This document shows, piece after piece, positions 11,077 to 15,053 of a stretch of DNA of 64,000 bases. This stretch comes from Candidatus Phaeomarinobacter ectocarpi (GTDB lineage: Bacteria > Pseudomonadota > Alphaproteobacteria > CGMCC-115125). The first letter of the stretch is position 1; each line of letters begins with the position of its first letter. Below the pieces are notes generated by a model that ran no database searches, was not told where the DNA came from, and was given only the letters and a program-made list of their open reading frames with translations. Made by a program: the position numbers and the translations under genes. The stretch covers positions 1,830,677-1,894,676 of the forward strand of contig NZ_HG966617.1 of the NCBI RefSeq assembly GCF_000689395.1, in the 5' to 3' direction.

Positions 11077-11787
11077 CTAATATGCGAAGCGAACCCCGGC
11101 GACAAAGGCCGTGGCATCCGTATCCTCGCCGTCTGCACGGGCAAAATCAGCCGTCTCACCGAGCTTGGCTTCGTAATTGACGCCGATATAGGGATTGAGA
11201 CCGCCCGTCACCACATAGTGGAAGCGGAGTCCGGCTTCGATCTTGGAGAAACCGGAACCAATCTCACGTGCCTGATTCTCGCTGGCACTGATGTCCAGTT
11301 CCACCAGGGGCTGAACAAACGTGCGGCGGGTCAGGAAGATTTCAGTCTCAATTTCCGTACGAAAAGACACGTCCCCGTCATCAGACAGATAAGCATTGCC
11401 CTCGAACTCAACCCACTGCTCCAGCAGGCCGGTGAGGCCCAGCACCAGATGCGTCGTCTCCGGGTCCGGTGCCAGATCATGACGCACGCCGCCCTGGACA
11501 TCGAAGAAGTCCGAGATCGGCCGCCGGTACAGAAGATGCACCTCCGAGCTTTCGAACTGGCCGCCACCAGTGCTTCGCTCAGCCTCAATGCCCAGAACGA
11601 CCTTGTGGTCGTCATTGCCGATGACCAAGTCACCTTCAACGAAGCCCACATCATCGCCATCCTGGACACGGTATTCGAGCCGTTCCACTGAGGCGTGACT
11701 GAGGATCATGTTGTCCATTTCTGCTGCAACCGCCGGCAGAGTGGACACAGCGAGCACGCAGCCCGCTGCCACAAAACGCGCCCACAT
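11077..11787 (-). CDS. copB: Copper resistance protein B (outer membrane)
   Basis: A 236-residue protein with an N-terminal signal peptide and alternating beta strands typical of the CopB/PcoB outer-membrane family, ending in an aromatic residue (FAY) as barrel proteins do. Motifs include VGFVEGDLVIGNDDHKVVLG, YRRPISDFFDVQGGVRHDL and GLNPYIGVNYEAKLGETAD. It lacks the long Met-rich N-terminal region seen in longer relatives. Its ATG shares a base with the copA stop codon, so the two are translationally coupled. CopB is thought to act with CopA in periplasmic and outer-membrane copper handling. Confidence 0.9.
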   Translation of the reverse strand: MWARFVAAGCVLAVSTLPAVAAEMDNMILSHASVERLEYRVQDGDDVGFVEGDLVIGNDDHKVVLGIEAERSTGGGQFESSEVHLLYRRPISDFFDVQGGVRHDLAPDPETTHLVLGLTGLLEQWVEFEGNAYLSDDGDVSFRTEIETEIFLTRRTFVQPLVELDISASENQAREIGSGFSKIEAGLRFHYVVTGGLNPYIGVNYEAKLGETADFARADGEDTDATAFVAGVRFAY

Positions 11788-13499
11788 CAGTGATGCGCCT
11801 TTGCAGGAGCGTCCGCGTTGGCCATGCCCCAGAGCGTCTCAAGCTCCGGGTCGACCATTGCCGTTTCTTCAGGCCCGCCTTCCACGATGACCTTGCGGAA
11901 CATGCCTGCAGCCATGTGGTACATGAGGTGGCAGTGAAACGCCCACTGCCCCGGCGCATCCACCTCGACATCCGCAGATATAGTGACGTTGGGCGGCACG
12001 GTCAGAACATGCTTGAGCGGGTTCCATTTGCCTGCCCCCACATCAACGATCTTCCACATGCCATGCAGGTGCATGGGATGCGCCATCATGGTCTCATTGA
12101 TGAAGGTGAAGCGCACCCGCTCTCCATATTGGAGACGCAGGGGCTCAGCCTCCGACAGTTTCTTGCCGTTGATGGACCACATATAGCGCTCCATGTTGCC
12201 GGTGAGCCGGAGCCTGATCTCTCGGTCATAAGGCCGCTCTTCATAGAGTGGTTCCTGCGCGCGCAGATCAGCCAGCGACAGGAACTTGCCACCATTGGCT
12301 GCGTCCGGTTCCAGCCCCGAGCCAGGTGCATAGAACGGGTCATCATCCCCACCCGACATCGCACTCATGTCATGACCCATGGCCGCATGGTCCATCTTGG
12401 AATGGTCCATGGTTGCCATGTCGTGCCCCATCGCAGCGTGGTCCATACCGTCCATCGATCCATGATCCATGTCGGCCATGGTGAGCCGGGGTGGATCGCG
12501 AAGCTCCGGCACGTCGGCGAACATGCCCTCACGCGGGGCCAGCGTGCCGCGGGCAAACCCGTCGCGCGCCATGGTTTCCGCGAAGATCGTGAACGCCTTG
12601 TCCTCGCGTGGGCGGACAATCACGTCATAGGTTTCCGCCACCGCAATGCGGAACTCATCCACCGGCACCGGACGCACATTGTTGGCATCCGCCTGCACCA
12701 CGGTCATCTTGAGGCCGGGAATGCGGACATCGAAGAAGGTCATGGCTGAGGCATTGATAAAGCGCAGGCGGATACGTTCACCCGGCTCAAACAAACCCGT
12801 CCAGTTCTGGTCCGAGTTTTGCCCGTTCATCAGATAAGTGTAGCCCTGCACATCGGAGATGTCGGATGGCATCATCCGCATCTCACCCCAGTCCAGCCGG
12901 TCTGAGATCGCTGCATCAAGACCATCCTCGGACGCATCCCTGAAGAACTCACCAACTGTGCGCTGGATACCATTGTAGTGATCCGGCGACCGCTTGAGGT
13001 TGCGGAACACCTGCATCGGGCTGTCTTCGTGCCAGTCTGACAGCACCACTGCATAATCCTGGTCATAGCGGAACGGTTCGCGACCTTCGGGCTCAATGAT
13101 GATGGGGCCATACATCCCCGCTCCTTCCTGCAGACCGGAATGGGAGTGGTACCAATAGGTCCCCGCCTTGGGCGCCTTAAAGCGATAGGTAAAGGTCTCA
13201 CCCGGCTTGATGCCTGGAAAACTCATGCCAGGGACGCCGTCCTGATCGAACGGCAGCACAAAGCCATGCCAGTGGATCGACGTATCAACCTTCAGCGTGT
13301 TGGTGACATTGATGGTGAGGTCTTCCCCCTCCTTGAAACGCAAGAGTGGCGCCGGCACCTGGCCATTGATGGCAAAGCCCGCCACAGGCTGACCAGATAC
13401 CTCAAGGGAGATTGGACCCACTTCAAGGTCATAGGTCCCCGCCGCCGCAGGGACGATGCCTGCCAACAGACATAAAGCCGTCAGAATACGGAGTTTCAT
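11787..13499 (-). CDS. copA: Multicopper oxidase, copper resistance protein A
   Basis: A 570-residue periplasmic multicopper oxidase. Copper ligands are visible: HWHG near residue 75, HSHSG near 120, HPMHLHG near 476 and HCHLMYHMAAGM near 523, which supply type 1, 2 and 3 centres. A Met/His-rich loop with repeated MDH and MGHDM units lies near residues 340-383, as in CopA-type copper-binding oxidases. The N-terminus is an ordinary Sec-type signal without a twin-arginine motif, unusual because many CopA enzymes use Tat. ATG 13499 has GGAG nine bases upstream. It starts six bases after the upstream cupredoxin gene and overlaps copB by one base, so it is the third gene of a four-gene operon. Confidence 0.95.
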   Translation of the reverse strand: MKLRILTALCLLAGIVPAAAGTYDLEVGPISLEVSGQPVAGFAINGQVPAPLLRFKEGEDLTINVTNTLKVDTSIHWHGFVLPFDQDGVPGMSFPGIKPGETFTYRFKAPKAGTYWYHSHSGLQEGAGMYGPIIIEPEGREPFRYDQDYAVVLSDWHEDSPMQVFRNLKRSPDHYNGIQRTVGEFFRDASEDGLDAAISDRLDWGEMRMMPSDISDVQGYTYLMNGQNSDQNWTGLFEPGERIRLRFINASAMTFFDVRIPGLKMTVVQADANNVRPVPVDEFRIAVAETYDVIVRPREDKAFTIFAETMARDGFARGTLAPREGMFADVPELRDPPRLTMADMDHGSMDGMDHAAMGHDMATMDHSKMDHAAMGHDMSAMSGGDDDPFYAPGSGLEPDAANGGKFLSLADLRAQEPLYEERPYDREIRLRLTGNMERYMWSINGKKLSEAEPLRLQYGERVRFTFINETMMAHPMHLHGMWKIVDVGAGKWNPLKHVLTVPPNVTISADVEVDAPGQWAFHCHLMYHMAAGMFRKVIVEGGPEETAMVDPELETLWGMANADAPAKAHH

Positions 13500-13505
13500 C
13501 ACTGG

Positions 13506-14114
13506 CTACTCCACATCTACCGTGCCGACCATGCCGGCCGCATAATGGCCCGGCACGTTGCACGCAAACTCTATGTCACCGCCGGACGTGAAGGTCCACA
13601 CAACGTCACCGCTCTTGCCCGGCTCAAGCAGTACGCTGTTGGGATGATCATGGGTCATCATGTGGCCGTCTTCGCCCATGGGGGTGTTCATCATCTCGTG
13701 ATTGATGTGATCGCCCATCAGGACGCCGTGCTGCTGCATCATCATCATCTCGCCCTGATGCGCTTCATGATAGGACGGCGTGCCCAGATTGAACTCATGA
13801 ACCAGCGTGCCGTTGTTGGCGATCTTGAAGTGGACAGTCTCGCCCGCCGAGACCGATAGCGTTTCCGGCTCAAAGTAGTTGTCACCCATGACGATCTCGA
13901 TGACCCGTTCAGCATCCGCCAGCTTGCCCGGTTTGCCGAAGGACATAGGGCCTGCCATTGCCTGCTGTGCACCATGCATCGAACCATTCATCGAACCGTG
14001 CCCGGCGCCATGATGATGGTCCCCTGAACCGGCAGCATGTGCACTCCCGACAGAGATAAAGGCACATGCTGCAATCAGTGAGGGCAGCTGATGAAAACGA
14101 ATTTTGATAGACAT
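13506..14114 (-). CDS. Periplasmic cupredoxin-domain copper protein
   Basis: A 202-residue secreted protein. After a signal peptide (cut near SAHA) comes a His/Met/Gly-rich linker. Then follows a plastocyanin-like domain with YFEPETLSVSAGETV, the ligand motif LVHEFNLG, a Met/His-rich insert (MMMMQQHGVLMGDH region) and the C-terminal CNVPGHYAAGM that supplies Cys, His and Met for a type 1 copper site. It probably binds or carries copper to CopA. ATG 14114 has GGAG eight bases upstream. An upstream in-frame start is possible but would bury the signal peptide. Confidence 0.85.
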   Translation of the reverse strand: MSIKIRFHQLPSLIAACAFISVGSAHAAGSGDHHHGAGHGSMNGSMHGAQQAMAGPMSFGKPGKLADAERVIEIVMGDNYFEPETLSVSAGETVHFKIANNGTLVHEFNLGTPSYHEAHQGEMMMMQQHGVLMGDHINHEMMNTPMGEDGHMMTHDHPNSVLLEPGKSGDVVWTFTSGGDIEFACNVPGHYAAGMVGTVDVE

Positions 14115-14219: not shown

Positions 14220-14558
14220 CTAGCTCAGACGGGGCGGAGGTGGATCGAGTGTGTAGGTCTTGCCAACGCTGGCAGGCGTAAAGGCAGCCTCAAACGAGGC
14301 ATGGACCCATGGCTGCGCAACGCGCAACGGTCCCGATGCCGTTTTGATGCCGACCATGCAGGACGCTGCTAAAGGACACAGACGAAGTTTGGACGGGTCC
14401 GTTTCCGGGTCCACGGGCATGTCGTGGCCGGTGTTGTCCATCTCCATCATGTCACACCCAAAGGCATGCGCGCCCGCCATGTCAGCGGACGCAAAGGCCG
14501 GAGCAGCAGCCGTGATAAGAATCAGGACGGCCAGAAATGGTGCAATGAAGAAGCGCAT
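14220..14558 (-). CDS. Small secreted Met/His/Cys-containing protein heading the copper operon
   Basis: 112 residues with a strong signal peptide (hydrophobic to about residue 23), then MDNTGHDMPVDPETD, two later cysteines and a proline-rich end. I do not recognise a family. Met, His and Cys content together with position as first gene of the cop operon suggest a periplasmic copper-binding role, which is inference. ATG 14558 is chosen because the other in-frame ATG at 14573 lies inside the CueR-type operator; in the predicted promoter the transcript would begin at or next to 14558, giving a leaderless message. Confidence 0.7.
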   Translation of the reverse strand: MRFFIAPFLAVLILITAAAPAFASADMAGAHAFGCDMMEMDNTGHDMPVDPETDPSKLRLCPLAASCMVGIKTASGPLRVAQPWVHASFEAAFTPASVGKTYTLDPPPPRLS

Positions 14559-14564
14559 GTGAGA

Positions 14565-14595
14565 ACGATGCACCTTCCAGCAGGGGGAAGGTCAA
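14565..14595 (-). promoter_or_regulatory. CueR-type copper promoter and operator
   Basis: On the minus strand a -35 TTGACC (14595-14590) is followed by a 19-base spacer and a poor -10 (14570-14565). The long spacer contains an inverted repeat, ACCTTCC, seven bases, GGAAGGT (14592-14572). The full 21-base repeat differs by one base from the site I recall at the Escherichia coli copA promoter. This architecture (long spacer with central dyad) is typical of MerR-family activators such as CueR. The TGA stop of the upstream Fe-S scaffold gene lies inside the -35 element. No cueR gene is in the window. Confidence 0.8.
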
Positions 14596-15053
14596 GCAGC
14601 ACTTTGTGTTTCAACCTGGCCGATCGCATCAAGCGTCGCCTCGAAGGTGAGCAGGATCGACTGATGGCGATTGCGGAACTCACGGGCCGGCTGAAGAACC
14701 TCGAGATCGGACCACTTGCCCGTGGGGGGCGCACCCTCCTCCTTCAGCATGGCCCGCATGGCATCCCGCGCCACTTTAACCTCATCGCGAGTGGAGCCGA
14801 CGATATGTGCGGCCAGGACTGACGAGGACGCTTGCCCCAGGGCGCAGGCCTGAACCTCATGGGAAAAGTCACTGACTTTTCCTTGGGCCATCTTGAGATG
14901 CACGGTCACTTTGGACCCGCACATCTTGCTGATGGCCGTCGCGGACGCGTCTGCATCCTCCAGAACGCCAATCCGCGGAATATCTGCGGCGAGTTCCAGA
15001 ATCCGGCGGTTGTAGACCTCGTTGAGGCCATTTTCGGTGACTGTTTGGCTCAT
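14592..15053 (-). CDS. Iron-sulfur cluster assembly scaffold-like protein (IscU/NifU fold)
   Basis: A 153-residue protein with the IscU/SufU fold pattern: an LNEVYNRRILELA start, DASATAISKMCGSKVTVHLKM with the first Cys, and HEVQACALGQASSSVLAAHIVG with the second. At the third ligand position of classic IscU (His-Cys) this protein has RHQS, so the third Cys is absent. Such shortened-ligand versions are common near yidD and hisI in alphaproteobacteria and their exact role is not settled. ATG 15053 fits the family start; the frame extends 12 residues further. Its stop codon overlaps the copper promoter. Confidence 0.85.
   Translation of the reverse strand: MSQTVTENGLNEVYNRRILELAADIPRIGVLEDADASATAISKMCGSKVTVHLKMAQGKVSDFSHEVQACALGQASSSVLAAHIVGSTRDEVKVARDAMRAMLKEEGAPPTGKWSDLEVLQPAREFRNRHQSILLTFEATLDAIGQVETQSAA

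What the first reader, a model, noticed from the sequence alone, without database searches (positions are those of the whole stretch)
14558..14595. Near-perfect CueR operator overlapping the stop of an Fe-S gene, with a probably leaderless copper operon
The minus strand shows TTGACC, a 19-base spacer holding ACCTTCC-N7-GGAAGGT, and a -10 such that transcription would begin at the first usable ATG (14558). The dyad is one base off the Escherichia coli copA CueR site as I remember it. The -35 contains the TGA stop of the Fe-S scaffold gene, so the promoter sits precisely at the gene end. Four genes follow: small secreted Met/His protein, cupredoxin, copA, copB. The regulator itself is not in the window.
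Basis: partly seen in the sequence, partly recalled or inferred. Interest (0 to 1): 0.6.

Follow-up and report, generated by a model that had tools for sequence, protein, structure and literature searches.

The report
CueR-driven leaderless copper-sensor leader gene
In a marine bacterium a copper-sensing switch (CueR) appears to start an mRNA exactly at the first codon of a small exported protein that itself looks like a second copper sensor guarding the copper-detoxification genes behind it, a layout repeated in at least eight bacterial families.

Summary
TTGACC-19-CATCGT with ACCTTCC-N7-GGAAGGT lies at 14595-14565(-); it differs from the E. coli copA box by 1 of 24 bases and is the only perfect dyad in the 3.42 Mb genome. 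A CueR-family gene lies about 180 kb away, directly before its own CueR box and the copA ATPase. Three congeners keep the box and put the ATG at exactly base 38 from the -35.

Across Alphaproteobacteria, 151 CueR boxes (52 families) show a sharp ATG spike at base 38 (27 sites, 18 families; background about 3 per offset). No open frame starts at 38 or 39 in 33 sites outside that class. Leaderless transcription is therefore well supported, though no start was mapped.

CutF and CruR sense copper as nascent chains and control downstream genes in cis. Eight families have this CueR, leaderless CutF-like ORF, CopI layout.

Best reading: two-tier control, with CueR (cytosolic copper) setting transcription and the nascent exported peptide (periplasmic copper) gating copI-copA-copB. 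Tier one is likely (about 0.85). Tier two is inferred (about 0.6). New variant of a known kind.

The parts
14590..14595 (-). -35 TTGACC, containing the TGA stop (14592-14594) of the NifU_N/SufU-like gene
   Evidence: sequence; overlap also in G002 and G003, absent in G001
14572..14592 (.). CueR operator dyad ACCTTCC-N7-GGAAGGT within the -35/spacer region
   Evidence: exact dyad, only perfect copy in the genome; conserved in G001, G002, G003
14565..14570 (-). -10 CATCGT (weak; CATCTT in G002/G003, CAGGCT in G001)
   Evidence: sequence and comparison
14556..14558 (-). ATG start codon = predicted +1 (leaderless mRNA)
   Evidence: base 38 of the box in all four congeners and five other families; ATG spike at base 38 over 151 CueR boxes
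14220..14558 (-). CutF-like leader gene, 112 aa
   Evidence: open frame conserved in 4 congeners, dN/dS about 0.07-0.13; invariant C35, C61, C67 and LDPPPPRL in genus; sub-threshold DUF2946 hit
14487..14558 (-). predicted Sec signal peptide, residues 1-24 (MRFFIAPFLAVLILITAAAPAFAS); the next in-frame Met is residue 27, after it
   Evidence: read from sequence; no signal-peptide program was available
14358..14378 (-). candidate copper site C61-PLAAS-C67
   Evidence: invariant in genus; C61 invariant and C67 nearly invariant (90% or more) in 11 proteins of alignment A2
14226..14243 (-). C-terminal PPPPRL, candidate ribosome-stalling motif
   Evidence: PPPR invariant in A2; R. capsulatus CutF ends PEPEGPPPRL (PMC8456105)
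14196..14216 (-). RNA hairpin GCTGCCGTT-TTC-AACGGCGGC, 3 bases after the stop codon; no U-tract
   Evidence: 46-nt fold z -2.27; a hairpin close behind the stop also in G001-G003 with other sequence; 40-locus tendency mean z -1.01 vs control -0.07
13506..14114 (-). copI-like periplasmic cupredoxin, with a GGAG Shine-Dalgarno
   Evidence: NF051440 184 bits (cut-off 280), Pfam Cupredoxin_1 and Copper-bind
11787..13502 (-). copA/pcoA multicopper oxidase
   Evidence: TIGR01480 720 bits, over its cut-off
11077..11787 (-). copB outer-membrane copper resistance protein
   Evidence: Pfam PF05275 213 bits
14592..15053 (-). upstream NifU_N / SufU-like Fe-S scaffold gene (neighbour, not part of the operon)
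   Evidence: PF01592 E 2e-10; TIGR01994 65 bits, below cut-off

Best explanation
A two-tier copper switch. (1) Cytosolic Cu(I) bound by CueR untwists the 19-base spacer at 14571-14589 so that sigma-70 RNA polymerase starts at or within about 2 bases of A14558. (2) The mRNA is leaderless; ribosomes start at its 5' AUG and make a small exported peptide. (3) The peptide is a CutF-like sensor: while it leaves through Sec, its Cys pair meets periplasmic copper, which holds the ribosome on the C-terminal PPPPRL; the ribosome parked at the gene end keeps the structured post-stop RNA open and lets copI-copA-copB be translated or transcribed on. The detoxification proteins are then made only when both compartments see copper. 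Shown by comparative sequence: operator, cueR, fixed start distance, constraint on the leader peptide, operon order. Inferred: copper induction, the exact +1, and all of step 3, whose downstream mode (translation as in CutF, or Rho as in CruR) is open.
For: Operator: unique perfect dyad, 1 of 24 bases from E. coli copA, kept in 3 congeners; cueR next to its own box and copA ATPase. Leaderless: ATG at base 38 in G000-G003 and in families f83, f155, f58, f97, f35, at 39 in f108 and f65; of 151 alphaproteobacterial boxes ATG at 38 in 27 sites/18 families vs means of 3.4 sites/2.9 families per offset 41-110; no open frame from 38-39 in 33 sites of the phylum outside the class; no room for a Shine-Dalgarno. 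CutF-like: length 112, Sec-type start, PP within 15 residues of the end, downstream gene 105 bases away; dN/dS 0.07-0.13; C-x5-C about 40 residues before PPPPRL, as in CutF C69-C73 and PPPRL 114-118; M1, C61, PPPR invariant at 18-32% identity between families; DUF2946 hits in 5 of 11 members, best E 0.0013; structured RNA after the stop.
Against: No expression data. The -10 is poor (CATCGT). The Cys spacing is C-x5-C, not CutF's CxxxC or CruR's CxxC, and the DUF2946 hit for the window protein is under its cut-off (15.1 vs 23.7 bits). The post-stop hairpin does not cover the copI Shine-Dalgarno, about 70 bases further on; the small stem that does (GCUC/GAGC) lies in an intergenic region that folds no better than chance (z -0.77). 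Starts at base 38 are also found for copA ATPases (16 of 88 sites with first in-frame ATG at 38-40), so leaderlessness is not special to the sensor (family-level Fisher p 0.10).
Confidence: 0.6

Rival explanations
1. CueR control and leaderless start are real, but the small protein is an ordinary periplasmic copper chaperone or scavenger acting in trans; there is no translational gate.
For: Secreted, Met/His/Cys containing, first in a copper operon; the DUF2946 match is below cut-off; no SD-shielding structure is secured. CutF was itself first discussed as a chaperone for CutO (PMC8456105).
Against: The body of the protein diverges to 18-32% identity between families while one Cys pair and PPPR at the very end persist, at CutF's distance; structured RNA directly after the stop; CutF does not act in trans (PMC9973294).
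Confidence: 0.25
2. The operon is CueR-controlled but mainly leadered: the main start lies elsewhere, or read-through from the NifU-like gene gives most transcripts, with translation from GTG 14573 or ATG 14558.
For: No terminator-like site was found between the genes; an in-frame GTG at base 23 of the box; GGAAGG 14 bases before the ATG could weakly pair with 16S rRNA.
Against: The GTG is a by-product of the operator (GGTG) in this genus and would put the -10 inside the coding region; in a read-through RNA GGAAGG would sit in the dyad hairpin (-13.4 kcal/mol fold); distance conserved to the base in several families.
Confidence: 0.12
3. Chance resemblance: the dyad is not a CueR site and the operon answers to another regulator such as CopRS/CusRS.
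For: No binding data; copAB operons are often under two-component control in other bacteria (general knowledge).
Against: Perfect dyad with -35 and 19-base spacer conserved in four genomes; 151 such boxes vs two or three control hits in 387 genomes, most before copper genes (88 copA ATPase, 10 cueR).
Confidence: 0.03

Closest known systems
Rhodobacter capsulatus cutF-cutO-cutG (CutF nascent-chain copper sensor; PMC9973294, PMC8456105)
   Same: Short Sec-exported leader protein first in a multicopper-oxidase operon; Cys pair about 40 residues before a C-terminal PPPRL; RNA stem-loop behind the leader gene.
   Different: C-x5-C instead of CxxxC; CopI cupredoxin is the next gene; hairpin does not cover the next Shine-Dalgarno; CueR box and leaderless start (the word 'leaderless' does not occur in either paper, and no CueR site for cutF was seen in the passages read).
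Bordetella pertussis CruR (bp2923), DUF2946 uORF (PMC9426467)
   Same: Small Cys leader ORF in first position with a proline C-terminal arrest motif; copper operon.
   Different: CXXC and RAPP motifs; copper shuts the operon down by Rho-dependent termination; controls a TonB-dependent transporter.
Xanthomonas copLAB
   Same: Small cis-acting copL before copA-copB, needed for copper-dependent copA expression (as cited in PMC9973294).
   Different: CopL was not compared by sequence here and its promoter was not examined.
E. coli CueR-copA promoter
   Same: 23 of 24 bases identical over -35 and operator.
   Different: E. coli copA has its ATG at base 71 of the box, with a leader; here the ATG is at base 38 and the target is a periplasmic detoxification operon.
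Cupriavidus metallidurans czcI2
   Same: Reported among leaderless mRNAs by start mapping (PMC7563307) and counted as CutF-like (PMC9973294).
   Different: Belongs to a Czc metal-efflux system, lacks the C-terminal proline motif.

Membership tests
CueR-type (MerR family) promoter | CCTTCC-N7-GGAAGG dyad between -35 and -10 | tested here: met
   exact 14/14 arms
CueR-type (MerR family) promoter | over-long 19-base spacer | tested here: met
   14589-14571 between TTGACC and CATCGT; the same in G001-G003
CueR-type (MerR family) promoter | cognate CueR in the genome | tested here: met
   TIGR02044 172.5 bits (cut-off 147.4) at 1663267-1663644
CueR-type (MerR family) promoter | copper-dependent activation and CueR binding | not testable with these tools
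   needs expression and binding assays
Leaderless mRNA | start codon at or within a few bases of the transcription start | tested here: inconclusive
   predicted +1 coincides with ATG; conserved spacing; no mapped start
[quoted passage not shown]
   112 aa, signal read by eye, PPPPRL-S, copI 105 bases downstream
CutF-like proteins | CxxxC copper motif of CutF itself | tested here: not met
   C61-x5-C67; relatives have mostly C-x5 to x7-C. The wider CutF-like set allows varied Cys/His motifs
CutF-like proteins | stem-loop that shields the next Shine-Dalgarno | tested here: inconclusive
   post-stop hairpin present but about 70 bases from the SD; intergenic z -0.77
CutF-like proteins | acts in cis by copper-dependent slowing of its own translation/export | not testable with these tools
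   needs toeprinting, pulse labelling and reporter assays
Pfam DUF2946 (PF11162) | score above gathering cut-off 23.7 | tested here: not met
   15.1 bits, E 0.041; 5 of 11 relatives hit at E up to 1, best 0.0013
CruR | CXXC and RAPP motifs | tested here: not met
   sequence
CopI (NF051440) | score above the equivalog cut-off 280 | tested here: not met
   184 bits, E 2e-54: a homologue, not an equivalog by that rule

The most novel reading that the evidence does not exclude
In Alphaproteobacteria CueR controls a defined leaderless regulon, and the leaderless start of the CutF-like sensor is functional: the operator-to-AUG distance is under selection because initiation by 70S ribosomes at a 5' AUG sets how many ribosomes can park at the PPPPR end, so transcriptional and nascent-chain copper sensing are mechanically linked.
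Probability: 0.15. Interest if true: 0.75.

Novelty: new variant of a known kind. Interest (0 to 1): 0.5.

Why it matters
CueR promoters and CutF-like nascent-chain sensors are both known, but in the papers read here they are not described together, and a start codon fixed on the predicted transcription start of a CueR promoter is not described either. If right, one short stretch of DNA reads copper in two compartments in series, and the position of the ATG in a CueR box becomes a simple predictor of leaderless copper genes across Alphaproteobacteria. It gives ready-made test cases in eight families for how leaderless initiation and ribosome stalling combine.

Tried and rejected
(1) Finding distant relatives with the genus alignment: the genome-contig scan gave only the known congener and a class-wide profile search gave only weak extra hits; anchoring on CopI and on the CueR box worked instead. 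(2) Pattern at up to 3 mismatches as evidence: rejected, equal to its control genome-wide. (3) A conserved SD-shielding stem like cutF-cutO: not established. (4) Intrinsic terminator after the leader gene: rejected, no U-tract, and the scan is at shuffle level. (5) Stop/-35 overlap as a meaningful feature: rejected, in G001 the stop lies upstream of the -35 without overlap. (6) Leaderlessness as a speciality of the sensor gene: not supported; copA ATPases have it too, family-level Fisher p 0.10. (7) Structure prediction of the 112-aa protein: not run, a nascent sensor of this size would not be diagnostic. (9) Sites classed 'CutF?' by rule include false ones (for example L197, L212, L220); only those checked by eye for a signal-like N-terminus and copper context were counted.

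Full report
OBSERVATION. On the minus strand the window reads TTGACC (14595-14590), a 19-base spacer, CATCGT (14570-14565), six bases, then ATG at 14558; the dyad ACCTTCC-N7-GGAAGGT spans 14592-14572. The dyad is exact. It is the only perfect one in the window and in the 3.42 Mb genome; allowing three mismatches the pattern is no more common than its control, so only the perfect match counts. The E. coli copA box, confirmed by search, is TTGACCTTCCCCTTGCTGGAAGGT; the window differs by one base, in the spacer. The TGA inside TTGACC is the stop of a NifU_N/SufU-like gene.

REGULATOR. Outside the window, at genome 1663267-1663644, lies the only protein above the CueR family cut-off (172.5 bits). 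It is followed directly by TTGACCTTCCCGTAACTGGAACGT and a gene for a copper P-type ATPase whose ATG lies about 80 bases from the start of that box, i.e. with a leader. One genome thus appears to use CueR twice: with a leader for the pump, without one for the window operon.

LEADERLESS START. The genus (a relative is recorded as Candidatus Phaeomarinobacter) has three other genomes held. All keep the box and all have ATG at base 38 counted from the first T of TTGACC, although the six bases before it differ (TCTCAC, TCTGCC, TCCAGC, CTGCTC) and one first protein is only 32% identical. Loci with a CopI cupredoxin in 385 alphaproteobacterial genomes then showed small leader genes behind CueR boxes: ATG at 38 in families f83, f155, f58, f97 and f35, at 39 in f108 and f65. 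Other loci have starts at 34 (a second f108 genome, too close to the -10 to fit the same start), 42-56 (f68), 67 (f106), 102 (f81) and about 108-120 (f135).

To remove selection by gene, all 151 exact TTGACCTTCC-N7-GGAAG sites held from Alphaproteobacteria were read; a scan of 387 genomes found sites in 101 of them with two or three control hits, and the sites cover 52 families. ATG occurs at base 38 in 27 sites and 18 families, at 39 in 10 sites and 8 families, against means of 3.4 sites and 2.9 families (maxima 11 and 9) for offsets 41-110. Sites are not independent, so the family counts are the fairer figure. Among copA-ATPase targets 16 of 88 have their first in-frame ATG at 38-40; among cueR genes none of 10. 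Of 33 sites in other classes of the phylum none opens a gene at 38 or 39; the one ATG at 38 is followed by a stop. In E. coli copA starts at base 71. The spike both predicts the transcription start (base 38) and supports leaderless messages as a habit of alphaproteobacterial CueR promoters. Leaderless mRNAs are common in this class: 375 mRNAs, 9.6% of CDSs, in Caulobacter (PMC4117421).

THE FIRST GENE. 14220-14558 encodes MRFFIAPFLAVLILITAAAPAFASADMAGAHAFGCDMMEMDNTGHDMPVDPETDPSKLRLCPLAASCMVGIKTASGPLRVAQPWVHASFEAAFTPASVGKTYTLDPPPPRLS. It is a real protein gene: substitutions fall on third positions and dN/dS (NG86) is 0.12, 0.07 and 0.13 in three comparisons. ATG 14558 is the only start that keeps the signal peptide apart from a GTG made by the operator itself. 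Within the genus GCD, CPLAASC and LDPPPPRL are invariant. Between families identity falls to 18-32%, yet M1, C61 and PPPR are invariant and C67 nearly so. R. capsulatus CutF has C69XXXC73 and ends PEPEGPPPRL (118 aa; PMC8456105): the same ending at nearly the same distance from the Cys pair. CutF has been shown to sense periplasmic copper as a nascent chain and to gate cutO in cis (PMC9973294). CruR does the opposite through Rho (PMC9426467), and CopL, before copAB in Xanthomonas, also fails to act in trans (cited). The window gene meets the published CutF-like filters but not CutF's own CxxxC, nor the Pfam DUF2946 cut-off.

BEHIND THE FIRST GENE. A 9-bp hairpin begins three bases after the stop (fold; z -2.27 for 46 nt), without a U-tract. 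Hairpins of other sequence lie close behind the stop in the congeners. Over 40 CopI loci the 50 nt after the leader stop fold better than shuffles (mean z -1.01; 160 random stretches of the same loci -0.07; Mann-Whitney p 1.2e-5). The copI Shine-Dalgarno GGAG lies about 70 bases further on; the small stem covering it is not backed by the fold statistics. RNA structure at the parking place of a stalled ribosome is therefore supported; direct SD masking as in cutO is not.

MECHANISM. Most likely CueR-Cu(I) starts a leaderless message; the CutF-like peptide is exported while being made, and copper on its Cys pair prolongs a stop on PPPPRL, which opens expression of copI-copA-copB. Confidence about 0.95 for a CueR site, 0.85 for leaderless, 0.6 for cis gating by the nascent peptide, lower for which downstream mode. 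Every step after the sequence evidence is inference.

NOVELTY. CueR sites, leaderless messages and CutF-like sensors are all known. czcI2 of C. metallidurans, counted as CutF-like, has been reported as leaderless (PMC7563307), so even a leaderless member is not without precedent. The serial combination, and the fixed ATG at base 38 of alphaproteobacterial CueR boxes, were not found in the papers searched; that library lacks most subscription journals. Verdict: new variant of a known kind, interest 0.5.

Noticed in passing
sites G576:C6:136132-136158 and G609:C7:68692-68718 (alphaproteobacteria): Fully symmetric CueR palindromes with TTGACC on both strands of one dyad (hits on + and - offset by 5 bases), which could act as bidirectional CueR promoters.
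   Followed up: no
L037 and L054 (genome G239, family f4): Two exact CueR boxes in one contig, each followed at more than 80 bases by a short ORF with signal-like N-terminus and Cys but no C-terminal PP; a possible CutF relative without the stalling end.
   Followed up: no
L033, L035, L043, L105, L115, L137, L147, L150, L169, L173, L175, L180, L187, L188, L193, L213, L226: CueR boxes with an in-frame ATG of a copA P-type ATPase at base 38-40: predicted leaderless copper-pump genes in 12 alphaproteobacterial families.
   Followed up: partly
L055-L099 (CopI loci): Most CopI genes in Alphaproteobacteria are preceded by a small exported Cys protein ending in PP; those with starts at base 38-39 end in PPPR plus one to a few residues, while those with later starts end in PPPE, PPR or PPEYR.
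   Followed up: partly
window 14573: In-frame GTG created by the operator (GGTG); annotation programs may call the leader gene 5 codons too long, hiding the leaderless start.
   Followed up: yes
window 14592-15053: NifU_N/SufU-like gene directly upstream with no terminator-like site before the CueR promoter, so read-through into the copper operon is possible.
   Followed up: no
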